From: a virus
Strand: one strand, 5' to 3'
IMG/VR virus record: IMGVR_UViG_3300006920_000133
Location: 1 to 33,093 of that record
DNA length: 33,093 nt
Of the stretch, positions 1 to 18,735 are shown in pieces. The first letter of the stretch is position 1, and every line of letters starts with the position of its first letter. The notes below the pieces were generated by a model. The model was not told the DNA's origin. It made no database searches and saw only the letters and a program-made list of their open reading frames with translations. A program made the position numbers and the translations under genes.

Positions 1-1
1 C

Positions 2-589
2 GACGATGTTATTAAGTGGAATATGAAAGGTATTAACACTAATACGTATAAGCAATGTCTAGGTAGCTATAGGCACTTGGATTATGACCCTACGGTACAA
101 AAATCTAGTGATTCTTTAATAGACTACTCCTCAGACCATATATCTGACTACGATATTAGTAACAAGGTAGCGGAGAATGATTTTAATGTGTACGATAGTA
201 ACCATGCTCAGGAGCTAACTGAGAGGTTCCTACATTACGCGGAACAGTCTCTCATGGAAGTAACAATTGAGGGAGATTTACGTCTATCTAGTATCCAAAT
301 AGCGGATAAGGTACAGTTAACCTTTGCTAGGTTCGTGGATAACCCTATTACAGGTGATGCTGAGAGGATATTTACGGTAACATCCATAAAGAAAGACTTT
401 AATAAGGTAATATTGAAGCTTAGCGATCTAGGTAATCTGATTAACAGGTCTGCGATCATAAGTGATGATGCTACTCCCACGTTTACATCTAGTACAGCGG
501 ATGAGAAGAGATTTAATAACTATATTACAGATGATAATGGGATAGTTACAGGAAGTGAAGAAACAAAAGGCAATAATTTAATAGTTTAG
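2..589 (+). CDS. tail hub / tip protein, 3' portion (gene cut by window start)
   Basis: This is the C-terminal part of the large tail protein that starts at 30514. The reading frame is open from base 2 and the first visible ATG (23) is internal, because the same sequence recurs at 32862-33093 inside the long frame, with that methionine at codon 791. Joining the two pieces around the circle gives one protein of about 978 residues. The segment here (about 196 residues) is acidic and rich in beta-forming residues, without membrane segments, and ends at TAG 587-589. Position after the distal tail and receptor-binding genes, and before the tail-tip accessory genes, supports a role in the baseplate or tail-tip hub. 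I infer the hub role from position and length rather than from a catalytic motif. Confidence 0.75.
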   Translation, partial: DDVIKWNMKGINTNTYKQCLGSYRHLDYDPTVQKSSDSLIDYSSDHISDYDISNKVAENDFNVYDSNHAQELTERFLHYAEQSLMEVTIEGDLRLSSIQIADKVQLTFARFVDNPITGDAERIFTVTSIKKDFNKVILKLSDLGNLINRSAIISDDATPTFTSSTADEKRFNNYITDDNGIVTGSEETKGNNLIV

Positions 590-1311: not shown

Positions 1312-2180
1312 TGAGTGGTAATTTCTACTTACCTGCTAAGACAGATATTGAAACAACATACAGTGAGAGTACATCAGGTACATATACTTGGACCGCTCCA
1401 GACGCTAATGGAGATTCTTCTACGTATGATCTTACTATAGACCTTTGGGGTGCAGGAGGCGGTGGAGCCTCAGGTGCTTACCGTACCGCTGGTGGCGGTG
1501 GAGGCGGAGGTGGCTCTTACGTTAGGTATGTAGTCACAGTAACCCCTGCTCAAGTATATACTTTTAAGGTAGGGGCTAAGGGTGCTGGTGGTCCCCAAGT
1601 CGGTGGTACTTCATCAGGTATAACAGGTGGTACTGGTGGTGTTAGTGAAATATCTATCGGTACTGGTTACGCTAGGGCTGGTGGTGGAGTAGGCGGTACT
1701 GGTGGTAATGATCTAGGTACTCATGCTGGTGGTGCTGGAGGTACAATCTCTAACGCGGATGATACATATATTACATTAGTCTCTACTACAGGTTCGCGCT
1801 CAGGTGCGGCTGGAGGCTCTGGTGGTCAAGGTACAAGTGCTACGTCTAGTGCTGGTGGTAGTGTTGCCGCTATTCTCAATGAGCCGGGAGGTACAGGTGG
1901 TTCTGGTAGAGGTGCTAACGGTGGTCCGGGCGGTGGAGGTGGAGCTTCATCACATAAAGATGGTGGTACTGGTGGTAACGGTATGACAAGTGCTCCTAAT
2001 GATTCATCCTCAGGTGGTGGTGGTGGTGGTGCTGGTTATCAGGATCCCGTAGCTGGATCAGATGCTTCTAATGTTGTTGCTTCTTTTATTGGTGCTGCTG
2101 GGGGTGATGGTGGTGATGGTTATTTTACTTTTACTTTTATTGTTCAAGGTGGTGGTGATTCAGGTAGTGCGCCTTCATAA
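1311..2180 (+). CDS. glycine-rich tail-tip / adhesin protein
   Basis: A 289-residue protein with long Gly-Gly-X runs from about residue 45 to 270, interrupted by short Ser/Thr/Ala segments. The DLWGAGGGG motif around residues 43-52 is typical of the glycine-rich domain of phage tail fibres and adhesins. Such repeats form polyglycine-II lattices in receptor-binding tips such as the long-tail-fibre adhesins of T4-like phages, where inter-repeat loops contact outer-membrane receptors. It is the last gene of the rightward structural block and lies next to tail-tip genes, which fits a host-recognition role. The repeats (mostly GGT codons) are prone to slippage and recombination, so length variation between relatives is expected. 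The adhesin role is inferred; the composition is directly seen. Confidence 0.65.
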   Translation: MSGNFYLPAKTDIETTYSESTSGTYTWTAPDANGDSSTYDLTIDLWGAGGGGASGAYRTAGGGGGGGGSYVRYVVTVTPAQVYTFKVGAKGAGGPQVGGTSSGITGGTGGVSEISIGTGYARAGGGVGGTGGNDLGTHAGGAGGTISNADDTYITLVSTTGSRSGAAGGSGGQGTSATSSAGGSVAAILNEPGGTGGSGRGANGGPGGGGGASSHKDGGTGGNGMTSAPNDSSSGGGGGGAGYQDPVAGSDASNVVASFIGAAGGDGGDGYFTFTFIVQGGGDSGSAPS

Positions 2181-2263: not shown

Positions 2264-2626
2264 TTACTCTTTTACTTCAACATCAATAGCTACTGGTTCT
2301 AATTCATCAAAATCAATAACTATAGCCTCAGAAGAATCACTCTCTTCCTTAGCCTCTTTCTCTTGCTGATACTTAGCTACTAGAGCGGCTGTTTCAACAC
2401 TATACATAAGCTTCTTCCACTTGTTAGTCTCAGTATCTTTTTTATCCATGCCACTGACTATAAGGTCTAACTGGTCCTCTATAATATCAAGCGTTTCTCT
2501 GTTCTTTGGCATTTGGTCTAATAAATCCTTAACAGATTGATTATCAATAGCGTTATAATATCTTAATAACCTATCCTCTAACCTTTTCTGTACGGCTGAT
2601 TTATTAAAGAACTTATTCTTAATCAT
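2264..2626 (-). CDS. hypothetical acidic protein
   Basis: A 120-residue protein, last gene of the leftward block, starting with an ATGA overlap with the upstream stop and preceded by GGAG. Residues 1-35 are basic and helical. The middle is charged and helical and could form a coiled coil. The last 35 residues are strongly acidic (Glu/Asp-rich). No catalytic motif, cysteine cluster or membrane segment is visible. I do not recognise a family. Translational coupling with the two upstream genes suggests it works with them. Confidence 0.6.
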   Translation of the reverse strand: MIKNKFFNKSAVQKRLEDRLLRYYNAIDNQSVKDLLDQMPKNRETLDIIEDQLDLIVSGMDKKDTETNKWKKLMYSVETAALVAKYQQEKEAKEESDSSEAIVIDFDELEPVAIDVEVKE

Positions 2627-2808
2627 TTATTACTCCCTGCGGTAAACATGGCTATTAATATAAATAACCCTGCTGTTTCTTTTACTGTTAATGGGTCAAG
2701 ACCTAGTACGGGAACTACGAATAAGCTCCACCCTAGATTTAACATTAACACTCCCCATAAAAGCGAGATTAAAAATCCTGCTGTGTACTGTAATAGATAC
2801 CTAATCAT
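2623..2808 (-). CDS. small two-helix membrane protein (possible holin)
   Basis: A 61-residue, very hydrophobic protein with two probable membrane segments (about residues 7-31 and 44-57) separated by a short loop containing Pro and Asp, and a short C-terminus ending in Asn-Lys. A clear AAGGAG site precedes the ATG, which overlaps the upstream stop as ATGA; its own stop overlaps the next start in the same way. Size and topology match small class II holins, but they equally match other phage membrane peptides. No endolysin is adjacent, so lysis is only a hypothesis. Confidence 0.55.
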   Translation of the reverse strand: MIRYLLQYTAGFLISLLWGVLMLNLGWSLFVVPVLGLDPLTVKETAGLFILIAMFTAGSNK

Positions 2809-3356
2809 TTCTTCTCCTTAGCTTCTTTTTGTTTCCTTAAGGATGTGCTAACCTTGTCTCTCCTTAGAGATACACCTAACTTAACACACTCCTTACCAAA
2901 CTCTAATAGTATTGATTCTAAATCCCTACCCACTTCGCTATTTATCTCATCCAGTGTAGCCTCTAAAAATGTTTCAAAGGCATACTGGGGATCATGGAGT
3001 GAGTTAATTGTATTAACCTCTCCGACTGGTTCTATATAATTATTATCGTCGTCTATAAACTTTAAATAATTACTAGAGGTAGCCGATATAGCGTATAAAT
3101 CTCTATTCTGCGCATTAGTCGCGTCATAGGTCTCTTTCTTAGCTAGGGCAAATTCTTCTTCTGATAGATTAGAGCGGTGGATAGAACCTTCCTTATTGAG
3201 CGCATTAGCGTAGTACTCGTTCTCAAACTGTTCTAGATAATCCCTGTCTTCATCAGACAGTTTATCCTTATAATCGGAGTCTACGAAGGGCTTTACATTA
3301 GCCCTATACCGTAGTCCTTTCTTTTTAGACGTAGTCTTCTTTTCCTTCTTACTCAT
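2805..3356 (-). CDS. conserved phage hypothetical protein with basic N-terminus
   Basis: A 183-residue protein. Residues 1-18 are Lys-rich. Around residues 22-55 is a segment of the type PF(V/I)D.DY..KLS.E...LEQF.NEYY that I associate from memory with hypothetical proteins of many marine and T4-like phages. A later Asn/Arg-containing stretch (NAQNRDLY, about residues 82-89) belongs to the same pattern. The C-terminus is again basic (RKQKEAKEKK). Basic ends suggest nucleic-acid or membrane contact, but no enzymatic motif is visible. It lies ten bases downstream of the exonuclease gene, in the operon read from the 5395-5423 promoter. Function unknown. Confidence 0.6.
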   Translation of the reverse strand: MSKKEKKTTSKKKGLRYRANVKPFVDSDYKDKLSDEDRDYLEQFENEYYANALNKEGSIHRSNLSEEEFALAKKETYDATNAQNRDLYAISATSSNYLKFIDDDNNYIEPVGEVNTINSLHDPQYAFETFLEATLDEINSEVGRDLESILLEFGKECVKLGVSLRRDKVSTSLRKQKEAKEKK

Positions 3357-3365
3357 AATATATCC

Positions 3366-4187
3366 CTACTTCTTAGGAGTATCTTTGAGTAAAGACCTTC
3401 TCTTCTCAATGGTTAGTTGATTAACCGTATCTCTGGTCTCATGACCACACTCTACACATCTATACTTCTGAAACTTAGCAGAGTTAGTAAAGAAGAAACC
3501 ATTCTTCTCAGATAGTTTTGATCCGCACTTACATACGTGATTATCACCATCATGGTATACGTTGAAGTTAATACCATTATCATAAGGAATAAGCTTATGG
3601 TATAGTTCCTCTAAAGATAGTACATCGTACTTATTGTACTTCTCCATCTCAGCCCAAGCCTTTGGGTTATTATCCATACACTCTTTCCATAGAGAGAAGC
3701 CGGGGAATTTACCATGCGGTAGTTTCTTATACTTCTCACATAGTTTATCAGTCATGTACTCAAGCTTATTGGATGAAAATGCAAAGTGCTTCCTAGCAAT
3801 TAGCAAAGTATCAATATGTCTATAAGAACTAGTTGGCGGCATACCATTAAGAATAAATCTTGCGTTTAATTTCTTCTGATCAAACTTCTTACCGTTCTGA
3901 GTGATAACAATATCAGCCTCGTCAAGTAAGGCGTGAATAGCCTTAAGTAATAATCTATCATCACTCTGCGGAGATACCCCTCTCTGATCTGCATAAAAAG
4001 TATCCTTAGGCTTATCACCTAACCACTTAGCTGCGAAGGACATTACATACCAGTCCTCCTTAATCATGTTTAACCCTATATTCTGGTCCCATAAGCCCCA
4101 GACATACGCTGTCATGGGACTGGTCTCAATATCAAAGACTAATACTTTTGGCTGTTTCTCTAAACTCTTCTTTTTCTTGTTACTCAT
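3366..4187 (-). CDS. DEDDy 3'-5' exonuclease with C-terminal zinc ribbon
   Basis: A 273-residue DnaQ-fold (RNase H-like) exonuclease. ExoI is FDIET (Asp19, Glu21), ExoII is NGKKFD (Asp103) and ExoIII is YNKYD (Tyr184, Asp188), the YxxxD form of the DEDDy class; together they bind the two catalytic metals that remove 3' nucleotides. After the nuclease domain comes a four-cysteine zinc ribbon: Cys219 and Cys221, then Cys244 and Cys247, probably a DNA contact. The basic N-terminus (residues 4-14) may also bind DNA. There is no fused polymerase domain: in family A and B polymerases this domain usually sits in front of the polymerase. Lying downstream of primase and helicase in the leftward block, it could proofread for the PrimPol enzyme or process ends. 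Function class is confident; the proofreading role is inferred. Confidence 0.85.
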   Translation of the reverse strand: MSNKKKKSLEKQPKVLVFDIETSPMTAYVWGLWDQNIGLNMIKEDWYVMSFAAKWLGDKPKDTFYADQRGVSPQSDDRLLLKAIHALLDEADIVITQNGKKFDQKKLNARFILNGMPPTSSYRHIDTLLIARKHFAFSSNKLEYMTDKLCEKYKKLPHGKFPGFSLWKECMDNNPKAWAEMEKYNKYDVLSLEELYHKLIPYDNGINFNVYHDGDNHVCKCGSKLSEKNGFFFTNSAKFQKYRCVECGHETRDTVNQLTIEKRRSLLKDTPKK

Positions 4188-4195
4188 AATATTCC

Positions 4196-4684
4196 TTAAA
4201 GTACTGCGCTATATAAAGCTACACGTTTACCGAATTTACCTTCGTGACAACCAGCCTCTACGATAAGCCCACTGTCTAATAATTCACCCATACGACCATT
4301 GATAGTACCTACAGATACCTCATTACCATTGGCTTTGATTACAGCTTCTAGTACTTGGTGCCTATCTACTCTTACACCGTCTACGATTGCCTTATATACC
4401 TGTTTAATGCGTTTACTATCGTTTAGATTAAGTACAGAGGATACGGTATGTACCTGAGCTACTTGATTCTTAGGCTTACTCTCAGGAATCTCAGATAGGG
4501 TTAGGAATGATCCATCTAGGTTAAATTCTGCTAGGTAAGACTCCTTCCACTCTGTAAATTTTACTAAGGCTAACTTTTCTGCTTGCGCTCTAGCTTGGAT
4601 TGCGATATGCTGATCTAGTGCGGAGGTAGTCATTGTAATTGTTGTCTCTTTAATCTGCGTAATGTTGTTAAGTTGATCTTTCAT
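4196..4684 (-). CDS. putative winged-helix DNA-binding protein
   Basis: A 162-residue protein with AAAGGA before the ATG. Residues 1-60 are helical and charged. From about residue 90 to the end the pattern (KRIKQVYKAIVDG, then a helix, then VSVGTINGRMGELLDSGLI and a beta-wing ending VALYS) looks like a winged helix-turn-helix: three helices with a VGTINGRMGEL recognition-type helix followed by a small beta-hairpin. That fold is common in phage regulators and in replication accessory proteins. It lies nine bases upstream of the exonuclease gene in the same operon. It could be a transcriptional regulator or an origin-binding accessory protein; the target is unknown. Confidence 0.6.
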   Translation of the reverse strand: MKDQLNNITQIKETTITMTTSALDQHIAIQARAQAEKLALVKFTEWKESYLAEFNLDGSFLTLSEIPESKPKNQVAQVHTVSSVLNLNDSKRIKQVYKAIVDGVRVDRHQVLEAVIKANGNEVSVGTINGRMGELLDSGLIVEAGCHEGKFGKRVALYSAVL

Positions 4685-4759
4685 TTTAATTTCCTTTGTT
4701 GTTTGTTGTTTGTTTTTATTTAGTTGCTTGTATACTTATTAAAACTATAGTTTGAGTTA

Positions 4760-4990
4760 CTAAACTTTAATTCTTTTACTTTGACGTTTCTCCTTCAAGG
4801 CTTTTCTACGCTCTAAAATAGAGGCTAGAGTAGCTAATGCGGATAGGGTCATCATAGTTACTGATGTAATGGCTAAAATAGATAGGGTAGGTGTATTCTC
4901 TGGTAGAATATAAAGCCCTGCTATTCCAGCCGCTACGAAGGCTGATACTTTTAATGTTGATTTAACTTCTTCTTTAGTTTGCTTTTTCAT
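4760..4990 (-). CDS. small membrane protein, two transmembrane segments
   Basis: A 76-residue protein with a basic N-terminus (residues 1-13), two hydrophobic segments (about 14-29 and 35-58) and a strongly basic C-terminal tail (ERRKALKEKRQSKRIK). By the positive-inside rule both ends should face the cytoplasm. AAAGGAAA precedes the ATG at normal spacing. It is separated from its neighbours by about 75 and 33 bases within the operon starting at 5395-5423. No family recognised; an early membrane protein could act in superinfection exclusion, host takeover or lysis timing, with nothing here to choose between them. Confidence 0.55.
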   Translation of the reverse strand: MKKQTKEEVKSTLKVSAFVAAGIAGLYILPENTPTLSILAITSVTMMTLSALATLASILERRKALKEKRQSKRIKV

Positions 4991-5023
4991 TGTAATTTCC
5001 TTTTTGTTTTGTTGTTGTTTTAT

Positions 5024-5209
5024 TTATTTAACGGTAATCATTTGTCTACATGCTCTCTCTGTTACAAAAGGTATAGGGTCTACCTCTCTGGTCTCTTTAT
5101 CAAGTAACAAATAGGCTACTCTAAGAGGGTCAAGGCACATATCCCTAGCTACTTCTTGTATTCTAATAATCTCTCTCTCAACACTTAATCTAAAGTCTTT
5201 GTCATTCAT
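5024..5209 (-). CDS. small hypothetical protein, first gene of the 5.4-kb promoter operon
   Basis: A 61-residue, mostly helical protein. Residues 7-20 form an amphipathic helix and the DPLRVAYLLL segment (about 27-36) suggests a second helix, as in small DNA- or RNA-binding phage proteins. Two cysteines (about residues 25 and 55) are far apart and do not form a zinc motif. GGAAAGA precedes the ATG. It is the first gene after the consensus promoter at 5395-5423 and would be among the most highly expressed early products. Function unknown. Confidence 0.5.
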   Translation of the reverse strand: MNDKDFRLSVEREIIRIQEVARDMCLDPLRVAYLLLDKETREVDPIPFVTERACRQMITVK

Positions 5210-5394
5210 TTTAATCTTTCCTTTTTAAGACGGTTCTCCACCTATCTTGGTTTTTGTTTCGATTACACCATGCAATCTTAAAATGTGTCTTTGGATTAAA
5301 ATAAGGTTTTTGATTTATGAGTTTACCTAGAATCGGCTCTCACTTCATACTTTTTTATTCTAAAGTCTAGTCCTGCGACTAGCTGTTATCTGGT

Positions 5395-5423
5395 ATTATA
5401 CACTATTACTTAGTCTGTGTCAA
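5395..5423 (-). promoter_or_regulatory. perfect consensus sigma-70 promoter (leftward) with initial-transcript hairpin
   Basis: On the minus strand TTGACA (5423-5418), a 17-base spacer, then TATAAT (5400-5395): six of six matches at both boxes and ideal spacing. Start of transcription is expected near 5388. The first bases of the transcript contain a perfect 6-bp hairpin, CTAGTC-loop-GACTAG (5367-5382), which would protect the RNA 5' end. The gap 5210-5498 otherwise holds only an untranslated leader of about 180 bases before the gene at 5209; I see no further gene in it. The promoter raises expression of the genes from 5209 to 2264 independently of replication genes upstream. Confidence 0.8.
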
Positions 5424-5498
5424 CTCGACATGCACGTTTATAGCCCAAAATCAAGCTATTTCTAAAACTAAATCGCATATTTGAACAATTACAGCTAC

Positions 5499-6416
5499 TT
5501 ACACCCACTTGAAGCCCGGTCTAAATGGTCTCTTATACTCAAAAAACTCACCTTTTTGGTATATTCTCTGTAATTGGTACTTATCATTAGAGTCTAAATG
5601 TCCAGTAATTGCTCTTAGAGCCTCTATAACCTCATCAAAGTCATAACCTTGACCGAAGCAATCATTAGCCGCACACCAAAACTTAGTACTCCACTCACCC
5701 TCTTCAAACTTACCATTAAAGAAGCTCACTGTAGCCTTTCTAAGCTCACCCTTACCGTATAGGTCAACATTCTTTTTAAGCTCCTTAGAATCGAATTTAG
5801 ACCCCTTAGAAGGGTTATTCTTACTAGGTTCTGCGGAGGGATAGGTAGCTAACCAGTTATTAAGGTCAATAAGGGGTATTCTACTATTAACTTGTAGTAT
5901 GGACGGGTTAAGACCAGTATCCTCTCTAGTGTTTAGAGGGTTTCTAAGACCCACTACTGCGGAGCTATTACGGTCTGCGTCACTAAGGATGTTTCTCATC
6001 CATTGCCTTACCCTTTTCCACTCTTCTCTGGATGCTAAAGGCTCCTCTAGGCTAACTACTACATGGAGAGATTTATTACCGCTATATACTACGGCTGAGA
6101 TAGGCAATCCTGATTCAACAAAGTATTTCAACTGCATGTTTAACTCTACCTGTCTACCTTGCTCATTAAGCTTGTCCCAGAACTTCTTATCTGGATCAAT
6201 CTCAAATAAGAAGCTCCTGTAGGAGGTAATATTCTCTTCACATACACCGTCTTTTACAGGGTTAATAACAATATTAGACCAATGCTCATTAATATCACAC
6301 TGATTAAATGACTTACCACTGGTCTTTAACTTACCAATGGTCTCCCCAGCATTGAACATAACCTCCATTAGAGCCTTTAAGTCGTAAGCTACTGGGTTAT
6401 TAGATACTATTTTCAT
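5499..6416 (-). CDS. archaeo-eukaryotic primase / PrimPol-type primase-polymerase
   Basis: A 305-residue primase of the archaeo-eukaryotic (AEP) superfamily, which makes primers and in phage NrS-1 type enzymes also extends DNA. Numbering from the start at 6416: motif I is FLFEID (Glu72, Asp74; metal binding), motif II is SGNKSLH (112-118; the nucleotide-binding serine-histidine motif), and motif III is around Asp146/Asp148 followed by GLRNPLNTR (Arg158). The C-terminal third (from about 215) resembles PriCT-type helical domains (FFNGKFEEGEW, then AANDCFGQGYDFDEVIEAL and TGHLDSND). An ATG also lies at 6422, but the AGGGG site abuts it and sits six bases before the ATG at 6416, so the inner start is chosen. 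The gene overlaps the helicase stop by 17 bases. In NrS-1 primase and helicase are one polypeptide; here they are split. Primase assignment is confident, polymerase activity is inferred. Confidence 0.85.
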   Translation of the reverse strand: MKIVSNNPVAYDLKALMEVMFNAGETIGKLKTSGKSFNQCDINEHWSNIVINPVKDGVCEENITSYRSFLFEIDPDKKFWDKLNEQGRQVELNMQLKYFVESGLPISAVVYSGNKSLHVVVSLEEPLASREEWKRVRQWMRNILSDADRNSSAVVGLRNPLNTREDTGLNPSILQVNSRIPLIDLNNWLATYPSAEPSKNNPSKGSKFDSKELKKNVDLYGKGELRKATVSFFNGKFEEGEWSTKFWCAANDCFGQGYDFDEVIEALRAITGHLDSNDKYQLQRIYQKGEFFEYKRPFRPGFKWV

Positions 6417-7695
6417 GTACATCCCCTAAGTTAATAGCCTCTAGTGTTGGGCTAGTCTTAATAATTAAAAAGTCACCATTATTACCCTCAGTACGGGCAC
6501 CCCTAACAGATACTACATCAAACACTGTCTTATAGGAGTTTGATAAGTTCTTAAACTTGTTACGTCCCGGAGCGGCACTTAGGTAATCTAACTCTTTAAC
6601 CATGGAGTCCTTAACGTCTCTAATACTAATCTTAATATCATTTAACTCAGAGGCTCCATTGTCCTTTCTAATTTGATCAGGGATATAGATATAGAGTAAC
6701 CATCTCTCCCAGTCTGATAGGGATGCCTCTAATACCTCATGCGTCTTCCTAGATACGAAGGGCTTAGTCATATTATTGGCTATTTCTCTATTAAGTAGGA
6801 AGTAGACAAAATCATCAACACTATTACCATTAAGTAGTAGTGAATCAATCTCTGACTGTGTTAAGTTATCCTCTAACCTATCGGAAGTAAGATTAACAAA
6901 GCTAAAACGTCTGTCACCTACTTGTACTTTAAGACCATCTACTCTATTAGAAGAGATATAAATATTAGCAAAGTTTCTTATAACCGCAGAGTCCTTACCC
7001 TTCTCCTCTACCTCGATATACTCATTACTAAAACTCTTAAGTCTCTCTACTTGTTCTGTACTGGTCAATTGTACTTCATCAATATTAAGGAGACAGCAAT
7101 TCTTTATTTGACCGTTAAAGGAGGACTTAATTACTCTGTCAGATACTTGCTTATAGTTACTACCGAATAAGTTACCACAAATACTACCTAACACACCCTT
7201 ACCAATACCCTGTGCACCGATTAAGGATAAGTAAGTAATATTCTTTCCCTTTAAAGCGGTTGATAACCAGTCTAAGATGTACTCCTCTGACTTAGTATCT
7301 CCCTCAGTTAAGTGCTCAAAGAACTTCTTATAGTGCTTAGGGTAAGAACCAGTAGGCTTAATATCCTCTGCAATATCACTAAAGAATGAGTCTTCCTGCC
7401 ATCTCGGAGGAGTGTAAGTATTGAATACTTGAAAGAATGACTCTACGAATAGTTTTTCGGATACGTCTGGACGGTACTGGAATGACGCAGGGATATGACT
7501 ATCTCTATAGTACTCGGCATACTTCTCACCTAGAATGGTCCTAAGTGCGGCTAATGTTACGGTCTCTACACGTTGTTCTTTAAGATTTAATAGGAAGTGA
7601 TCGGTGGTCTTCTCTGAAATATCACTAATTAACATACTACTTTGAATAAATGAAACAGTCTCCTGCTTACTTATTACTTGATTTTTCTTCTTCAT
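6400..7695 (-). CDS. superfamily 3 replicative helicase (D5 / NrS-1 type)
   Basis: A 431-residue helicase from the start at 7695. Walker A is GAQGIGKG (160-167), Walker B is LLNIDE (Asp206, Glu207), the SF3 motif C asparagine ends NIYISSN (Asn250) and the arginine finger lies in GDRRFSF (about 261-266). The arrangement matches the D5-like/DUF5906 helicase fused to the primase of phage NrS-1. Such hexamers unwind DNA 3'-5' and load at origins. The N-terminal 130 residues are a helical domain; the C-terminal 130 may include a winged helix. An upstream ATG at 7710 is possible, but GGAG lies nine bases before 7695, which I prefer. Expressed just before the primase with overlapping frames, so the two are probably made in matched amounts and act as one complex. 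Confidence 0.87.
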   Translation of the reverse strand: MKKKNQVISKQETVSFIQSSMLISDISEKTTDHFLLNLKEQRVETVTLAALRTILGEKYAEYYRDSHIPASFQYRPDVSEKLFVESFFQVFNTYTPPRWQEDSFFSDIAEDIKPTGSYPKHYKKFFEHLTEGDTKSEEYILDWLSTALKGKNITYLSLIGAQGIGKGVLGSICGNLFGSNYKQVSDRVIKSSFNGQIKNCCLLNIDEVQLTSTEQVERLKSFSNEYIEVEEKGKDSAVIRNFANIYISSNRVDGLKVQVGDRRFSFVNLTSDRLEDNLTQSEIDSLLLNGNSVDDFVYFLLNREIANNMTKPFVSRKTHEVLEASLSDWERWLLYIYIPDQIRKDNGASELNDIKISIRDVKDSMVKELDYLSAAPGRNKFKNLSNSYKTVFDVVSVRGARTEGNNGDFLIIKTSPTLEAINLGDVHENSI

Positions 7696-7933
7696 CTTGC
7701 TTGTCTCCATATTGAGCTTTGTTTAGTTCTAATACCTCTAAAGTATTCTCTCTCTTTACTATCTTTAATGTTGTTGAGTACTTACTAATGTTTATAATCT
7801 TATCACCTGAGAGAGTGATAATCTCCTCTCCGGCTTTAATCTTACGCACAAGCCCCTTCTGATGGACATACTCTACGTTAGTCTTTTTGTTGGTCTTAAT
7901 CACTTTAATCTCCTGTTTTGAACGGCTCTGCAT
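7667..7933 (-). CDS. hypothetical basic protein upstream of helicase
   Basis: An 88-residue protein with a Lys-rich N-terminal third, a central beta-rich part (GLVRKIKAGEEIITLSGDKIINISKY) that looks like a small beta-barrel or KOW/SH3-like fold, and an acidic tail rich in Glu/Lys/Ser. AAGG precedes the ATG. Its 3' end overlaps the helicase gene start, suggesting coupling. A small beta-barrel beside primase and helicase could be a single-strand-binding or loading factor, but size and sequence are not diagnostic and I do not assign it. Confidence 0.5.
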   Translation of the reverse strand: MQSRSKQEIKVIKTNKKTNVEYVHQKGLVRKIKAGEEIITLSGDKIINISKYSTTLKIVKRENTLEVLELNKAQYGDKQDEEEKSSNK

Positions 7934-7953
7934 TGAGCCTTATTAAAATTTAC

Positions 7954-8331
7954 TTATTTGCTTGATATGGCTGTTATAATATTGTTTTTAAGGTATACGT
8001 AGTACTCCTGATAGACACATTGCTCATAAATACCATGCTTAGTAGTAGTAATATTCAAACGGTACCTATCACCTAATATAATCCTCATTAAACCCTTATC
8101 CATACCTATGACTAATTCAGCCCTAATTGCCTCCTCCCTGAATTTTACTTGGCTGGGTACTTCTTTTAAGTAAGTATCTACTCTTTTTACCATGTTAGCC
8201 TCTTTTTTTAGTAAACATTCTTTATCATAGTCACCCCAAACGGTCTGACAAGGGGCTAACCCAGCACTACCCTCAGTAGTAGCGCATGATGCAAATGTTA
8301 ATAGTAATAATAGTGTTAATAGACTCTTCAT
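7954..8331 (-). CDS. BamE/SmpA-like lipoprotein
   Basis: A 125-residue protein with a lipoprotein signal: basic start (MKS), Leu-rich core (4-13) and lipobox FASC, giving lipid-modified Cys16. The C-terminal half (about 72-124) follows the SmpA/OmlA (BamE) pattern: IGMDKGLMRIILGDRYRL (the GMxxxxVxxxLGxP helix-strand), then HGIYEQCVYQ and YVYLKNNIITAIS strands. BamE is an outer-membrane lipoprotein of the beta-barrel assembly machine; similar domains occur in inhibitor lipoproteins. AAAGGA precedes the start. In a phage early operon such a protein might alter the host envelope after infection, for example by blocking receptor display or superinfection. The fold is a pattern judgment; the role is inferred. 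The middle region contains two Cys (28, 39) that could form a disulfide. Confidence 0.7.
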   Translation of the reverse strand: MKSLLTLLLLLTFASCATTEGSAGLAPCQTVWGDYDKECLLKKEANMVKRVDTYLKEVPSQVKFREEAIRAELVIGMDKGLMRIILGDRYRLNITTTKHGIYEQCVYQEYYVYLKNNIITAISSK

Positions 8332-8356
8332 AATTTATCCTTTTTGATTCTTTGTC

Positions 8357-8548
8357 TTAATTATTTACTCTTTTTCTAAGTAATAATCTAATGTTTGATT
8401 TTATATAACCTGTTCCTTGGCTTTGTTCTAACGTAGCCCCTCTAACTCTTACCTTTACTCTTATCTTACTCGTTTTCTCATTCGTACCTAAAAAGGCTGT
8501 TAAAAGTCCGACTACTAATAATGCTGATAAAAAGTTAAACATGCTCAT
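8357..8548 (-). CDS. small single-span membrane protein, basic tail
   Basis: A 63-residue protein starting at the ATG 8548, which has AAAGGA seven bases upstream; longer versions would run into the 30-bp hairpin repeat and the preceding gene and have no such site. Residues 4-20 form one hydrophobic segment. The rest is basic (many Lys/Arg), predicted to lie in the cytoplasm and possibly contact membrane or nucleic acid. It follows the repeat copy at 8563-8592 by only 14 bases. Function unknown. Confidence 0.5.
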   Translation of the reverse strand: MSMFNFLSALLVVGLLTAFLGTNEKTSKIRVKVRVRGATLEQSQGTGYIKSNIRLLLRKRVNN

Positions 8549-8562
8549 TCTAATTCCTTTGT

Positions 8563-8592
8563 TAAGCGCATAGCGCGTCGTGCTTACGCACT
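8563..8592. repeat. 30-bp double-hairpin repeat, copy 1
   Basis: Thirty bases matching 10078-10107 at 29 positions. It contains GCGC-ATA-GCGC and GTGC-TTAC-GCAC mini-palindromes; on the complementary strand the second loop reads GTAA, a GNRA-type tetraloop. The single mismatch between copies falls in the first loop, so base pairing is kept. A longer pairing TAAGCGC with GTGCTTA is also possible. This copy lies in the leftward operon between the 65-residue gene and the small membrane protein gene, whose ribosome binding site follows at once. Confidence 0.8.
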
Positions 8593-8597
8593 TGGTT

Positions 8598-8795
8598 TTA
8601 GTTAAATGTAGTACCTTTATCCTCTTTCTCTTCAAACATTTCAAGTAATTCTTCCCATTTTTGTAATTGTTTCGTGGATTGTAATAAACCCTCATACAAA
8701 TCTAGGTTATTCTTCCTTAGTTCCTCATTCTCTAATTCTAATTCTTTATTTCTATCTAATACCTCATCTAAGTATTTTTCTTCAATATCATTCAT
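8598..8795 (-). CDS. small acidic coiled-coil protein
   Basis: A 65-residue, Glu/Leu/Asn-rich protein that is almost certainly one continuous coiled coil (heptad-like EELRKNNLDLYEGLLQ and neighbours). Its ATG overlaps the endonuclease stop (TAATG), a strong sign of coupled translation. No catalytic residues. It may dimerise and act as an anti-host or regulatory peptide; nothing visible allows a more exact statement. Confidence 0.5.
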   Translation of the reverse strand: MNDIEEKYLDEVLDRNKELELENEELRKNNLDLYEGLLQSTKQLQKWEELLEMFEEKEDKGTTFN

Positions 8796-9418
8796 TATAG
8801 TCCTACCTTTTCTTTAGTGGTTAATATAATCTTAGGTTCTTCCTCTACGTAATACGACCAACTAGCCCTAGTACCATCTGGATATTTACCTGCTGTAGCA
8901 TTGGGCTTCTTTAGGCTTGAATTAACATTCTGTCTACTCATACCAAAAGCGGCACCAGCGTCCGAGCTTGAGGCAAATACCTCTCCACGACAATTAACTA
9001 CTGGTTTCTTCTTAGGATTGTTCTTACTCATCTTAACCCTAGATGTGAGACACACCTTACTATCTTCATACTGCTCAGAGTTACCCTTAGCAGATGTATT
9101 AGTACCAATCTCAAAGCTTCTCTGGTTAGACCTAGGCACCATTGATCTACGCATGAAGAGACAAGTCTCATAGGCTCTTTTCTCAGACTTTATATCTTTA
9201 AGCATAATAAAAGATTCCCACTCCCCCTCAGCAGCTACTTGTTGCCACTTAAAGGTACGTCCCTCCTTAGAGTTTAATTTATCACCATCCCCAAAACCAA
9301 TGTAAAATACTTCCTCAGTCTCTACTAGCCTGTGACCATAAACATAGTACAGAGTCCCGTTATTTACTTCTTCTCCCATGTCATTTACTTTTTTCTTCTT
9401 CTTCTTTGTATTACTCAT
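8795..9418 (-). CDS. GIY-YIG homing-type endonuclease with NUMOD-like DNA-binding end
   Basis: A 207-residue protein. The GIY-YIG nuclease core spans about 22-95: YVY (25-27), YIG (39-41), the GxGDGD turn, Arg54 and a C-terminal Glu (84) in AYETCLF, in the order expected for the catalytic module. After a linker comes a NUMOD1-like segment (about 140-190): CRGEVFASSSDAGAAFGMSR (143-162) followed by a helix and GKYPDGTRASWSY, a helix-turn-helix element that binds target DNA in free-standing homing endonucleases. I take the ATG at 9418 because AAGGAG sits seven bases upstream; the longer frame from 9466 runs into the promoter -10 box. It is the first gene after the leftward promoter, unusual for a selfish endonuclease, so a role in host DNA attack or origin function is possible. 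Confidence 0.75.
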   Translation of the reverse strand: MSNTKKKKKKVNDMGEEVNNGTLYYVYGHRLVETEEVFYIGFGDGDKLNSKEGRTFKWQQVAAEGEWESFIMLKDIKSEKRAYETCLFMRRSMVPRSNQRSFEIGTNTSAKGNSEQYEDSKVCLTSRVKMSKNNPKKKPVVNCRGEVFASSSDAGAAFGMSRQNVNSSLKKPNATAGKYPDGTRASWSYYVEEEPKIILTTKEKVGL

Positions 9419-9456
9419 ATTCAATCTCCTTAAAGTTATAAGTTCTTCTTTACGGC

Positions 9457-9485
9457 ATTTTAACATATTACACCTACTATGTCAA
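9457..9485 (-). promoter_or_regulatory. leftward early promoter (sigma-70)
   Basis: On the minus strand TTGACA (9485-9480), a 17-base spacer and TAAAAT (9462-9457). The -35 is perfect and the -10 matches five of six. Transcription should start near 9450, about 30 bases before the endonuclease ATG, and run through the replication genes. The upstream side of the promoter is very A/T-rich, which may act as an UP element. Confidence 0.78.
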
Positions 9486-9633
9486 ATTACCTAAAACACA
9501 GGGTAATAGGGGTATTTACCTAATATCAACTACTTATCAGATAACATACAATAATTATATTAAAATAGAAAGAAACATATTAAAATAGGATAATAGGAGA
9601 CTAAAATAAACAAAAATAGACTAAATCATACCG

Positions 9634-9801
9634 TATACCCAAAGTAGGGGTACTCAGAACGCCTTCTCCAGCCTCCTCCCGGCTATACCCAACGTATACC
9701 CAACATTTTGGGGATAGGCTAACTAGCCGTTATTGTTAGGTTTCCTTATTTATAGAGTTTTATAAGTACTTGATTTAATTAGAATAATATATTGTATACC
9801 C
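9634..9801 (+). repeat. forward iteron cluster (TATACCCAA), 4 copies
   Basis: Four copies of TATACCC, preceded by G or C and followed by AA in every case. Two copies at 9684 and 9695 are 11 bases apart, on nearly the same face of the helix. Mirror-image partner of the cluster at 9892-10007. Confidence 0.75.
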
Positions 9802-9891
9802 AAAAGGGTGCTACCTCAAGGATTTTTTCAACCATACCATGTACCCCCATACCCACTATAATAATATATATCTCTGAACTGGGAATATTTT

Positions 9892-10007
9892 GGGTATAGG
9901 GTTAATTTTACCTCGAAATACGCTAAAGAAGTTAATCATTTCAATAAGTTAAGCTATCCCAGAGGGCTTGGGTATAGGTCTGGTATCGCTGGGTATCGCT
10001 GGGTATA
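9892..10007 (-). repeat. inverted iteron cluster (TTGGGTATA), 4 copies
   Basis: GGGTATA at 9892, 9970 and 10001 and GGGTATC at 9991, that is the reverse complement of the 9634-9801 boxes. From 9982 the sequence is a near-perfect 10-base tandem (GGTATCGCTG type, three units). Confidence 0.75.
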
Positions 10008-10077
10008 GATTTAACAATTACAACTACTTAGCTTTTTACTAAAGTTTTTCACATACTTTTCGATAAATATGTTACAC

Positions 10078-10107
10078 TAAGCGCAAAGCGCGTCGTGCTT
10101 ACGCACT
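10078..10107. repeat. 30-bp double-hairpin repeat, copy 2
   Basis: Direct-repeat partner of 8563-8592 (29 of 30 identical; same orientation on the plus strand). Here the first loop is AAA instead of ATA. It lies 28 bases before the ATG of the rightward lipoprotein gene, just after a weak promoter-like TTTTCA-16-TATGTT (about 10047-10074), so it would sit in the leader of that transcript. Confidence 0.8.
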
Positions 10108-10135
10108 CGTAACACTCTTAAACAAAGGAAATTTT

Positions 10136-11157: not shown

Positions 11158-11616
11158 ATGAGTAAGAAGAAAGATTCATATCAGAATTTACCAATCCATA
11201 GAAAGATTAATCACCGATCTACACAAGCAATGATTCAAAAGTTAATTACAGAACATATTATCCCTATGTTAGGTAAGAACATGACCTTTGGTGAGATATG
11301 TGAGGAGTTACGGGAAATAACAGGTAAAAGCTCTAGTCAGTGTGAGAGATACATTAACAGAGCCTATGAGGAGCTTTCTAAGGACTTTAACAGAGATACT
11401 GGACAACAGCGCATGGAAGCTATAACCGCGCTTAGAGAGGACCTGAGAGAGGCTTACGCTAATTACTCTGATGGAAAGTCTGTAATGTGGTGGAAAGAGT
11501 ACCAAGCTATTAAAGAAAGACTACATAAACTATCACCATTAGAGATACCTAGATCAGACGATAACCAAGCAATTACAATATCATATAAAGTATTAGATGA
11601 GAGAGACTCAGAGTAA
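11158..11616 (+). CDS. terS: terminase small subunit (probable)
   Basis: A 152-residue protein with a basic N-terminus and a helix-turn-helix-like segment around residues 40-75 (MTFGEICEELREITGKSSSQ then CERYINRAYEEL), as in small terminases that bind phage packaging sites. The middle (85-125) is a helical oligomerisation region containing VMWWKEYQAI. Small terminases form rings that recognise DNA and stimulate the large subunit. Its stop overlaps the large-subunit ATG (TAATG at 11614-11618), which with gene order is the strongest support. The sequence itself is not highly diagnostic. Confidence 0.75.
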   Translation: MSKKKDSYQNLPIHRKINHRSTQAMIQKLITEHIIPMLGKNMTFGEICEELREITGKSSSQCERYINRAYEELSKDFNRDTGQQRMEAITALREDLREAYANYSDGKSVMWWKEYQAIKERLHKLSPLEIPRSDDNQAITISYKVLDERDSE

Positions 11617-14312: not shown

Positions 14313-14831
14313 GTGGTAGCTAAAGCAAACCTACAAGAGACTATACCCATCCCATCAGGTCTATCTAATGCCTTTAAGGCAGAACTAGGTAGGAGGATGC
14401 TTACTGAGGTAAGGGAGCGTACTGGTAGAGGTATAGATAAGAAGGGTAAGCGGTTTAAGGGGTACTCAGATGAGTATAAAGACTCCTTAGACTTTAAGAT
14501 AGCTGGTAAGAGTAATTCAGTTAACCTTAGACAAACGGGTGATATGTTAGCAGATATAGAGGTATTAAGCATTGGCTCTGACTCTATTACCATAGGGTAT
14601 TCATCTGGGTATGATGATGCTGGAAAGGTAGAGGGTAATGTTATTGGTTCTTTCGGTAATCCTACGGGTGACCCCTCAAAGGCTAGAGACTTTATAGGTC
14701 TACCTAGTAGTGTTGTTAGTCGCATTGTGGCAGAGATACGCTCAGAGCCTGAGTTTAGAGAGCAGAGGACTGAGAGAGATTCAGCCATAGCAGGTATACT
14801 ATCTAGGTTCTTTATAGAAGATGTGGAGTAA
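14313..14831 (+). CDS. virion morphogenesis protein, gp10/gpG-like (first of two)
   Basis: A 172-residue protein beginning with GTG directly after the portal stop, AGGAAG upstream. Motifs: RTGRGIDKKGKRFKGYSDEY (36-55), then NLRQTGDMLADIEV and a beta-rich region, the arrangement of HK97 gp10 or Mu gpG-like neck and tail completion proteins (a conserved K.F..YS..Y block followed by a Leu-Thr/Arg-X-Thr-Gly-X-Met segment). These join the tail to the head. It lies between portal and scaffold, earlier than gp10 usually occurs. Its neighbour (14835-15287) has the same pattern, so the pair is probably an old duplication. Confidence 0.6.
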   Translation: MVAKANLQETIPIPSGLSNAFKAELGRRMLTEVRERTGRGIDKKGKRFKGYSDEYKDSLDFKIAGKSNSVNLRQTGDMLADIEVLSIGSDSITIGYSSGYDDAGKVEGNVIGSFGNPTGDPSKARDFIGLPSSVVSRIVAEIRSEPEFREQRTERDSAIAGILSRFFIEDVE

Positions 14832-16993: not shown

Positions 16994-17224
16994 ATGTATG
17001 AAACACCAGAACTATTTATTTCATTAAAGTACATTAAGTCTAAGTCTCCTGATAAGTTACAAGAAGAAATGTTACAGATTCAGGTTACGGCTAAGAAGCC
17101 CGTTAACTTCTCAACACCAGAACATACAGATGGTTATTGGTATACGTGGTACTCATACGACTATACTCAAGACATAAGACCTAAAGATAGGTTATCAATT
17201 AATAATACAAAGGAAGCTAAGTAA
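16994..17224 (+). CDS. small hypothetical protein in head region
   Basis: A 76-residue protein with AAAGGAA at the right distance before the ATG. Aromatic-rich central stretch (HTDGYWYTWYSYDYTQD) and a Lys-rich start. No known motif, no membrane segment. Its stop overlaps the next start (TAATG at 17222-17226). It may be a small virion or assembly protein that acts with the 503-residue protein, but this is position only. Confidence 0.55.
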   Translation: MYETPELFISLKYIKSKSPDKLQEEMLQIQVTAKKPVNFSTPEHTDGYWYTWYSYDYTQDIRPKDRLSINNTKEAK

Positions 17225-18735
17225 TGAGCCTTCCTAAAGACATAAACGATAAGAAGAGTCAATCCTACGTATCAGTAGGTAATGATCAAACAGCTATTAG
17301 AACAGTAGAGACACATAAGCCATCTAATAAGTCCTCGTTTGGTGACTTTCTAGCAGACTCCCTAGACCCCATAGAGCAAATTTCTGCACAGTACGGACTA
17401 TTAAATAATGTAGAGACCTTTGACGCTACTGGGGGATCAGTAAGCACAGTAGATAACATGTTTACGTGCACCACAGGTACTAGTATAGGTGGTTACGGAG
17501 TTATTAGAAGCAAGGGTCCAACTATTTATAGAGAGGGTCAGGGATTAATGGCTAGGTTCACAGCCTTATTTGACGCTAACGCAGTAGCTAATAGTCTACA
17601 ATTTGCTGGATTATTTAACGTACAAGATACAATAGCGTTTGGTTATAGAGGTACAGACTTTGGCATACTATTTGATTCATATGGTGCCCAAGAAGCACAT
17701 GAGTTAATCATAACTACTATGACTACTGGTAATTTAGAACTAACACTTAATAGTATTCTATATACAATACCAGTAACTACTGGGACTAACGCTCACAATG
17801 CCTATGAGATTGAGGCTTGGATGAAAGCTAATCAGTCTGTATGGGATGCTGAGCAAATAGAGGATAAGGTTATCCTTAGGTCTAAGAGTGTTGGTGTTAA
17901 GGCAGGTACGTACTCAGCCACAGGTGCTGGGTTTACTGGTTCATTACCACAGGTAACTACAGGTACAGCTAAAGTAGAATCTACAATACTACAGACAGAC
18001 TGGAATGGAGATACATTTTCATTCGACCCTACTAAGGGTAATATATACATGGTCAAAGTATCTTACTTAGGTTTCGGTCCAATAAGTTTCTTTATAATGG
18101 ATAGTGCTGGAGACTTTAGACGAGTACATACCATTAACTATCAAAACAATAACATTAAACCATCTATATCAAACAGAGCATTAAAAGTAGGGTGGACAGC
18201 CGCATCATTAGGCAGTACTACAGATTTAACAGTACAGGGTGCTAGTGCAGGTACATTTATTGAGGGTAAGTCTAGGATAAAGGCTAATGCCCACGCTCAG
18301 TCATTCTCTAATACAGCCGTAGGTACATCCTTTGAATCAGTAATAACCCTTAAGAGTAGAGAAGTATTAAATGGTAAGGCTAACTTAGGTAAAGTTAATA
18401 TAATAAGGCTAGAGCTGTCTACTGACTCTACTAAAGAGGTAGTGGTAAAGGTATGTAGAGATGCCGTACTAGGTCAGACTAACTTTGTGTACCATGATGA
18501 GCTTGACTCAGTGGTTACTTACGATACTACAATACACGCAGATTCATTAAATGGTGCTAATGGTGCCCACGCTGTATATGAGACTCAGATAGGTAGTTCT
18601 GGAGCAAACTCAGTAGACTTAAAAACCGTAGATTTAGCTTTTGTTAGTGGTGAGACTATAACCGTATACGCAAAGGTAGTATCTGGTAGTGCTAGTGATG
18701 TAACAGCCTCCCTAGTATGGAAAGAGGATTTATAA
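17224..18735 (+). CDS. virion structural protein (marine-phage fibre/decoration family)
   Basis: A 503-residue beta-rich protein, Thr/Gly/Ser-rich with no cleavage signal. A central segment (FSFDPTKGNIYMVKVSYLGF about 266-285, then GPISFFIMDSAGDFRRVHTINYQN) and an earlier NSLQFAGLFNVQDTIAFGYRG are patterns I recall from proteins of many environmental phages, annotated only as structural or tail-fibre-like. The first 40 residues look like a virion-attachment segment; the rest is probably a string of beta-sandwich domains. Position just after the capsid suggests a head fibre, decoration or neck appendage. Assignment to the virion is strong by context; exact site is unknown. Confidence 0.65.
   Translation: MSLPKDINDKKSQSYVSVGNDQTAIRTVETHKPSNKSSFGDFLADSLDPIEQISAQYGLLNNVETFDATGGSVSTVDNMFTCTTGTSIGGYGVIRSKGPTIYREGQGLMARFTALFDANAVANSLQFAGLFNVQDTIAFGYRGTDFGILFDSYGAQEAHELIITTMTTGNLELTLNSILYTIPVTTGTNAHNAYEIEAWMKANQSVWDAEQIEDKVILRSKSVGVKAGTYSATGAGFTGSLPQVTTGTAKVESTILQTDWNGDTFSFDPTKGNIYMVKVSYLGFGPISFFIMDSAGDFRRVHTINYQNNNIKPSISNRALKVGWTAASLGSTTDLTVQGASAGTFIEGKSRIKANAHAQSFSNTAVGTSFESVITLKSREVLNGKANLGKVNIIRLELSTDSTKEVVVKVCRDAVLGQTNFVYHDELDSVVTYDTTIHADSLNGANGAHAVYETQIGSSGANSVDLKTVDLAFVSGETITVYAKVVSGSASDVTASLVWKEDL

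What the first reader, a model, noticed from the sequence alone, without database searches (positions are those of the whole stretch)
9541..10010. Inverted iteron clusters TATACCCAA / TTGGGTATA around an AT-rich core: candidate origin
Four direct boxes at 9634-9801 and four inverted boxes at 9892-10007 flank an AT-only stretch; the right cluster is phased at 10 bases. They lie beside the replication operon. From memory, NrS-1 polymerase starts synthesis at a specific short template motif beginning TTTGG; the boxes here with TTTTGGGTATA would be a comparable site. That link is conjecture.
Basis: partly seen in the sequence, partly recalled or inferred. Interest (0 to 1): 0.75.

Follow-up and report, generated by a model that had tools for sequence, protein, structure and literature searches.

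The report
Phage iteron cluster, candidate replication origin
A phage genome carries a tight, one-place-only cluster of about ten copies of a 9-letter DNA word between its two opposing gene blocks, most likely the landing site where its own primase-helicase machinery starts DNA copying; it is a new example of a known kind of origin, made more interesting because the best-studied relative (deep-sea phage NrS-1) turns out to have a similar, apparently undescribed cluster around its known priming site.

Summary
The boxes are real. The only divergent gap of this 33-kb siphophage (9467-10135) holds four exact TATACCCAA on + (9634, 9684, 9695, 9795), two exact on - (9890, 9968) and two near-copies on - (9989, 9999). 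A matrix built from these eight ranks all eight above every other site in the genome; the gap has 9 ATACCCA where shuffles give 0.2. The "AT-rich core" is not right: the AT-only run is 15 nt in a 37% GC spacer, and the genome's two least stable 50-bp stretches lie at 9546-9595 and 9748-9797. Best reading: an iteron origin (also the replication operon's promoter region), opened by the phage's own SF3 helicase and primed by its separate archaeo-eukaryotic primase. The helicase is homologous to NrS-1 polymerase's helicase (E 9e-14). In NrS-1 and two relatives I found an iteron cluster directly after the polymerase gene; its unit changes in concert between phages, and in NrS-1 it encloses the known priming motif TTTGGTTA. 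The chief rival is operators controlling the divergent operons.

The parts
9467..10135 (.). Divergent intergenic region (the only one in the genome) that holds all the boxes; candidate origin and divergent promoter region
   Evidence: ORF map; motif counts
9546..9595 (.). Candidate unwinding element 1: joint least stable 50-bp stretch of the genome, inside the 20% GC stretch 9540-9633; also holds the best sigma70-like leftward promoter match (9583-9554)
   Evidence: nearest-neighbour stability scan; promoter scan
9634..9642 (+). Box L1 TATACCCAA (other strand CTTTGGGTATAC)
9684..9692 (+). Box L2 TATACCCAA
9695..9703 (+). Box L3 TATACCCAA, 11 bases after L2
9708..9716 (-). Inverted near-box TATCCCCAA in the left cluster
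9748..9797 (.). Candidate unwinding element 2: joint least stable 50-bp stretch of the genome, between boxes L3 and L4
9795..9803 (+). Box L4 TATACCCAA (other strand CTTTTGGGTATAC)
9848..9856 (+). Direct near-box CATACCCAC in the spacer
9857..9871 (.).
9890..9898 (-). Box R1 TATACCCAA (+ strand TTTTGGGTATAG)
9968..9976 (-). Box R2 TATACCCAA, first unit of the 10-11 base phased run
9979..9988 (-). Degenerate unit of the phased run (+ strand TCTGGTATCG)
   Evidence: sequence reading
9989..9997 (-). Box R3 gATACCCAg
9999..10007 (-). Box R4 TATACCCAg
6400..7710 (-). SF3 helicase (DUF5906), homologous to the C-terminal helicase of NrS-1 polymerase; candidate initiator
   Evidence: Pfam PF19263 E 9e-19; PDB 6k9c/6k9e E 9e-14; blastp E 3e-15
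5499..6422 (-). Probable archaeo-eukaryotic primase (prim-pol), separate gene overlapping the helicase gene
   Evidence: phrog_2597 DNA primase E 6e-7; LigD_Prim-Pol below its cut-off; tblastn to primase part of phage primase-helicases
3366..4187 (-). RNase H-like 3'-5' exonuclease of the replication operon
   Evidence: phrog_403 E 8e-100; PF13482
8795..9466 (-). First gene left of the gap; GIY-YIG-like residues plus a weak I-TevI-type DNA-binding domain (probable free-standing homing endonuclease)
   Evidence: PF20987 E 3e-4, below cut-off; GIY-YIG by eye

Best explanation
The gap 9467-10135 is the phage's replication origin, of iteron type, and at the same time the promoter region of the leftward replication operon. 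A phage-encoded initiator, most likely the SF3 helicase 6400-7710 (alone or with a small DNA-binding partner), binds the TATACCCAA boxes, which sit on one helical face (10-11 base spacing) in two groups of opposite orientation. Binding assembles helicase rings, opens one or both of the very weak stretches 9546-9595 and 9748-9797, and the archaeo-eukaryotic primase 5499-6422 then starts synthesis near the boxes. Shown here: the boxes, their confinement to this gap, the phasing, the weak duplex, the helicase homology to NrS-1, and an iteron cluster beside the polymerase gene in NrS-1 and two relatives. Inferred: that any of these proteins binds the boxes, that the gap fires as an origin, and where priming starts.
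For: Box clustering far above chance and confined to one 0.4-kb tract. Helical phasing on the right (11, 10, 10) and left (11). The two least stable 50-bp stretches of the genome lie in this gap. The phage encodes its own SF3 helicase, AEP-like primase and exonuclease in the operon that starts at this gap. The helicase is homologous to NrS-1 polymerase's helicase part. In NrS-1 (AB746912) 11 exact AAGTGTAAC boxes in both orientations (0 elsewhere) and an AT-rich tract follow the polymerase gene directly, and the only exact priming motif TTTGGTTA sits among them. A 68%-identical relative (L202) has 8 copies of a unit changed in concert to AAGTGTTAC in the same place; a third (L213) has a looser version. 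Precedent: SaPI Rep and SCCmec Cch2 bind iterons with their C-terminal domains, and SCCmec CCPol-MP primes preferentially at the iteron region (PMC7581432); P4 alpha binds origin repeats (cited in PMC4234260). No lysogeny repressor or integrase was recognised among the proteins searched that would call for operators.
Against: No binding, replication or coverage data. No close relative of this phage was found, so conservation of the gap itself could not be tested. GC skew turns at the gap, but coding-strand GC3 skew is positive in every zone, so it tracks gene strand and does not reverse opposite the gap. The cluster is 1.8 kb from the helicase gene, not adjacent as in NrS-1. In ten phages with more distant DUF5906 helicases no strong cluster lay beside the primase gene. 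The related AEP-SF3 replicon pRN1 uses a stem-loop and no iterons (PMC4234260). The divergent-promoter position fits operators equally well.
Confidence: 0.6

Rival explanations
1. The boxes are operators of a phage transcription regulator that controls the two divergent operons. Read in the direction of transcription, both clusters have the same sense (TTGGGTATA leftward on the left, rightward on the right), so a repressor or activator could act symmetrically on both promoters. No role in replication is needed.
For: Position in the only divergent intergenic region. Box orientation is the same relative to transcription on both sides. Sigma70-like matches overlap or adjoin the left boxes, 7 found against 2.7 expected. 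In unrelated records the same 9-mer surrounds a ribbon-helix-helix gene (L168) and precedes a ParM-like gene (L176), as operators would. A possible winged-helix protein is encoded at 4196-4684 (by eye; phrog_4405 E 0.008).
Against: No repressor gene was recognised next to the gap; genomes with such boxes around a regulator carry that regulator beside them. Eight or more sites over 370 bp with long irregular spacing, placed far from the predicted leftward promoter (9583-9554), is much for simple operators. It does not explain the genome's weakest duplex lying between and beside the boxes.
Confidence: 0.28
2. The boxes are a partition (centromere-like) or packaging site, or sites for a host factor.
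For: L176 has four TATACCCAA in front of a ParM-like gene. The small terminase-like ORF 11158-11616 is about 1.2 kb downstream.
Against: No ParM/ParA or recombinase was recognised in this genome. Packaging sites usually lie in or next to terS. No cluster of DnaA-like boxes in the gap: one TTTTTCACA at 10045, genome-wide count below chance.
Confidence: 0.07
3. Chance or low-complexity accumulation of a short word in AT-rich non-coding DNA.
For: The 9-mer is short, and one-mismatch copies are scattered in genes.
Against: 9 observed against 0.2 expected with a maximum of 3 in 2000 shuffles; matrix ranks 1-8 all lie in the gap.
Confidence: 0.01

Closest known systems
Nitratiruptor phage NrS-1 replication module (AB746912; PrimPol fused to SF3 helicase)
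   Same: Homologous SF3 helicase (E 9e-14); a prim-pol type primase; a non-coding cluster of about 9-bp repeats in both orientations, partly phased at 12 bases, with an AT-rich tract; repeat strand reads TTTGGGTTACAC against TTTTGGGTATAC here.
   Different: NrS-1 has primase and helicase in one protein in the order primase-helicase; here they are two genes in the order helicase-primase, and the primase shows no significant similarity to NrS-1's. The NrS-1 cluster directly follows the gene; here it is 1.8 kb upstream in the divergent promoter region. Repeat units differ.
SaPI Rep / SCCmec Cch2-CCPol origins (PMC7581432)
   Same: Initiator helicase plus separate primase or polymerase, and an iteron origin in non-coding DNA of the replication operon; priming preference maps to the iteron region in SCCmec.
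   Different: Those origins lie downstream of the helicase gene; iteron units differ; binding there was shown, here not.
Satellite phage P4 alpha protein and its origin repeats
   Same: SF3 helicase with primase in one replication module and short repeats as origin (cited in PMC4234260).
   Different: P4 alpha has a TOPRIM primase and a C-terminal winged helix shown to bind the repeats; no such domain could be demonstrated here.
pRN1-type plasmids and phage BIP-1 (PMC4234260)
   Same: AEP primase plus SF3 helicase.
   Different: The origin is a roughly 100-nt stem-loop behind the rep gene without iterons; the gap here does not fold better than shuffles (z -1.66).

Membership tests
Iteron-type replication origin | Multiple short repeats, helically phased, confined to one non-coding locus | tested here: met
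Iteron-type replication origin | Adjoining AT-rich, easily melted region | tested here: met
Iteron-type replication origin | Linked gene for an initiator (helicase or Rep) of a known origin-binding family | tested here: met
   SF3 helicase in the operon starting at the gap
Iteron-type replication origin | Initiator binds the repeats; locus replicates autonomously | not testable with these tools
   needs EMSA or footprinting and a plasmid assay
Iteron-type replication origin | Replication strand bias turns at the locus | tested here: inconclusive
   Cumulative GC skew minimum at the gap, but GC3 skew follows gene strand in all zones
NrS-1-type PrimPol replication system | SF3 helicase of the NrS-1 polymerase family | tested here: met
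   phmmer E 9e-14, blastp E 3e-15 over about 200 residues
NrS-1-type PrimPol replication system | Prim-pol domain similar to NrS-1 N300, fused N-terminally | tested here: not met
   Separate gene in the opposite order; no significant similarity. Hence not filed as a member
NrS-1-type PrimPol replication system | Priming motif TTTGGTTA in the template | tested here: inconclusive
   Boxes read TTTTGGGTATA or CTTTGGGTATA in about half the copies; 9/11 match to NrS-1/L202 repeat, p 0.02 post hoc
Operator array of a divergent promoter | Cognate regulator gene in the element | tested here: inconclusive
   None recognised by Pfam or PHROGs in the replication block and flanks; an unclassified winged-helix-like protein at 4196-4684 remains possible
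pRN1-type stem-loop origin | Large stable stem-loop | tested here: not met
   z -1.66, 2 of 20 shuffles fold as well

The most novel reading that the evidence does not exclude
The repeat is a double-duty element: the initiator's binding site and the primase's template start motif are the same short word. In NrS-1 the known priming motif TTTGGTTA is formed at the junction of two iterons, and here the boxes carry a similar TTTTGGGTATA. Two inward-facing groups would then lay down two DNA-primed leading strands that cross the opened gap, giving bidirectional replication without RNA primers.
Probability: 0.17. Interest if true: 0.72.

Novelty: new member of a known kind. Interest (0 to 1): 0.47.

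Why it matters
NrS-1 polymerase is a well-studied example of a DNA polymerase that starts without a primer at a defined sequence, yet the papers read here mention only two copies of the 8-nt site and no repeat cluster. Showing that this site lies in a conserved iteron cluster, and that a distantly related phage with a split primase-helicase has an analogous cluster in its divergent gap, makes origin recognition by such enzymes directly testable with purified proteins. It also suggests that unexplained short-repeat clusters in phages with AEP primases are worth testing as origins.

Tried and rejected
Single-protein searches of viral contigs with helicase, first leftward gene, terminase and primase found no relatives; the exonuclease search found 80 loci, none sharing the replication genes. 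The alignment A1 was too divergent to search with. A search for tandem TATACCCAA in viral contigs gave chance hits, 18-base coding repeats and a few unrelated clusters (L168, L176, L152/L115, L192); the six of these records that were tested lack the DUF5906 family. A general rule 'iterons beside every DUF5906 primase-helicase' was tested on ten phages and rejected. AlphaFold models of the helicase and of 4196-4684 were useless (pLDDT 35 and 42), so no fold search was run and a DNA-binding C-terminus of the helicase stays unproven. A pRN1-like stem-loop, DnaA-box cluster and Rfam elements were not found. GC skew as evidence for the origin was rejected as confounded by gene strand. The gap has no DNA match in phage or plasmid records.

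Full report
WHAT IS THERE. The window is a whole IMG/VR virus record of 33,093 bases. Its first and last 232 bases match at 227 positions, and the ORF running off the right end joins the one entering at the left in frame (frame worked out from coordinates), so it is a terminally redundant or circular, essentially complete siphophage of about 32.86 kb with terminase, portal, capsid, tape measure and tail fibres on the plus strand. Genes 2264-9466 lie on the minus strand and include the replication proteins; all larger genes from 10136 round to 2180 lie on the plus strand. The only divergent gap is 9467-10135.

THE BOXES. Exact TATACCCAA lie on + at 9634, 9684, 9695, 9795 and on - at 9890 and 9968; near-copies lie on - at 9989, 9999 and 9708 and on + at 9848. 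The right-hand run is phased at 11, 10, 10 bases and two left boxes are 11 apart. In 2000 dinucleotide shuffles of the gap ATACCCA never exceeded 3 copies (mean 0.2); nine are observed. TATACCCA occurs 7 times in the gap and twice in the rest. A matrix of the eight main boxes ranks them 1-8 in the genome, the best outsider being at 14341 in a gene; in leave-one-out tests every box ranks 1-12 of 66,166. It is the strongest non-coding clustered 8-mer in the genome.

THE MACHINERY. Protein 6400-7710 is an SF3 helicase (PF19263, E 9e-19) whose closest solved structure is the C-terminal helicase of NrS-1 polymerase (6k9c/6k9e, E 9e-14; blastp E 3e-15). 5499-6422 is a probable archaeo-eukaryotic primase (phrog_2597 E 6e-7; weak LigD prim-pol; tblastn to the primase part of phage primase-helicases), but not detectably similar to the NrS-1 prim-pol domain. 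3366-4187 is an RNase H-like exonuclease. No repressor, integrase or partition gene was recognised among the proteins searched.

THE COMPARISON THAT CHANGES THE WEIGHT. The literature gives that motif as TTTGGTTA, with GTG(A/G) as a second site (PMC8718748), and says the genome has two copies, in opposite strands at its centre (PMC7102993). In AB746912 I find one exact copy, on the minus strand at 17198-17205. It lies inside a cluster of eleven exact AAGTGTAAC boxes (five +, six -) at 17062-17377, directly behind the polymerase gene, with no copy elsewhere; three are spaced by 12 bases and an AT-rich tract follows. Read on the other strand the core is GTGGTTACACTTTTGGTTACACTTTGGGTTACACTTT, so the priming motif is the junction of two iterons. 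A relative with 68% identical polymerase (L202) has the same cluster in the same place with the unit changed in concert to AAGTGTTAC (8 exact copies), and a third (L213, from an Epsilonproteobacteria MAG) has a looser version; the three regions align throughout with indels of 2, 4, 5 and 10 bases. Concerted change of all units is the usual mark of repeats that evolve with their binding protein (inference). The window box and the NrS-1/L202 repeats match in 9 of 11 letters (p 0.02 by permutation, chosen after the fact): suggestive only.

LIMITS OF THE COMPARISON. I tested whether iterons generally lie beside DUF5906 primase-helicases. In ten phage loci of 30-37 kb (L203-L212) no strong cluster lay beside the gene; strong clusters in three (L204, L207, L210) lay 11-13 kb away, and L212 had a weak one beside it. 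Chi-like, Bradleyvirinae, JWT and FP_Lugh loci show four-copy clusters just behind the primase, but these are not significant by the same score. So the rule is supported for NrS-1-like polymerases and this window, not in general.

HOW IT MOST LIKELY WORKS. Inferred: the helicase or a partner binds the phased boxes, rings form on both groups, the weak stretches open, and the phage primase starts synthesis close to the boxes. If the primase uses the box itself as NrS-1 does, starts on the left group would run rightward and starts on the right group leftward, crossing the gap and giving two forks. Precedents are SaPI Rep and SCCmec Cch2/CCPol, where helicases bind iterons and priming maps to the iteron region (PMC7581432), and P4 alpha (cited in PMC4234260). 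The same boxes could also regulate the replication operon, since they lie in its promoter region.

RIVALS. Operators of a divergent regulator fit the position and the fact that both groups have the same sense relative to transcription; the same 9-mer surrounds a ribbon-helix-helix gene in L168 and precedes a ParM-like gene in L176, in records where no DUF5906 helicase was found. I give this 0.28. Partition, packaging or host-factor sites get 0.07. GC skew does not help: its minimum is at the gap, but coding-strand GC3 skew is positive in every zone including the last third of the plus block.

VERDICT. New member of a known kind (iteron origin of a phage with its own helicase and primase); interest comes mainly from the NrS-1 cluster, which makes the model testable.

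Noticed in passing
L199 (AB746912, NrS-1) 17055-17456: The annotated hypothetical protein NRS1_29 covers the iteron cluster; alignment with L202 and L213 shows indels not divisible by three, so the ORF is probably spurious and the region non-coding.
   Followed up: partly
L168 2636-2880: Seven TATACCCA boxes, one pair with the same 11-base spacing as the window, surround and overlap the start of a ribbon-helix-helix gene in an unrelated phage fragment.
   Followed up: partly
L176 1800-1855: Four TATACCCAA spaced 10, 23 and 11 bases directly upstream of a ParM/actin-like gene; possible centromere or operator using the same word.
   Followed up: no
L152 7400-7650 and L115 1270-1510: TTGGGTATA boxes in both orientations just after an integrase gene, possibly arm sites of an attachment region.
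   Followed up: no
window 1-232 and 32862-33093: Near-identical ends (227 of 232): terminal redundancy or a circular genome assembled with strain variation.
   Followed up: partly
window 8795-9466: GIY-YIG-like protein with I-TevI-type DNA-binding motif next to the candidate origin; compare the iteron-directed nuclease Odn of phage ICP1 (PMC8263062).
   Followed up: no
L204 2071-2356, L207 465-658, L210 4928-5273: Strong iteron-like clusters (AGAGTGAC, GGTGGACA, TCGTAACA) in Vibrio and Pseudomonas phages, 11-13 kb from their primase-helicase genes; candidate origins not pursued.
   Followed up: no
window 3366-4187: The exonuclease has 55-67% identical relatives in many phages of 50-120 kb that share no other gene found with this one: a mobile replication module.
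   Followed up: no
window 1585-2150: Long run of CACCACCA/ACCACCAG repeats inside the minor tail protein gene 1311-2180.
   Followed up: no
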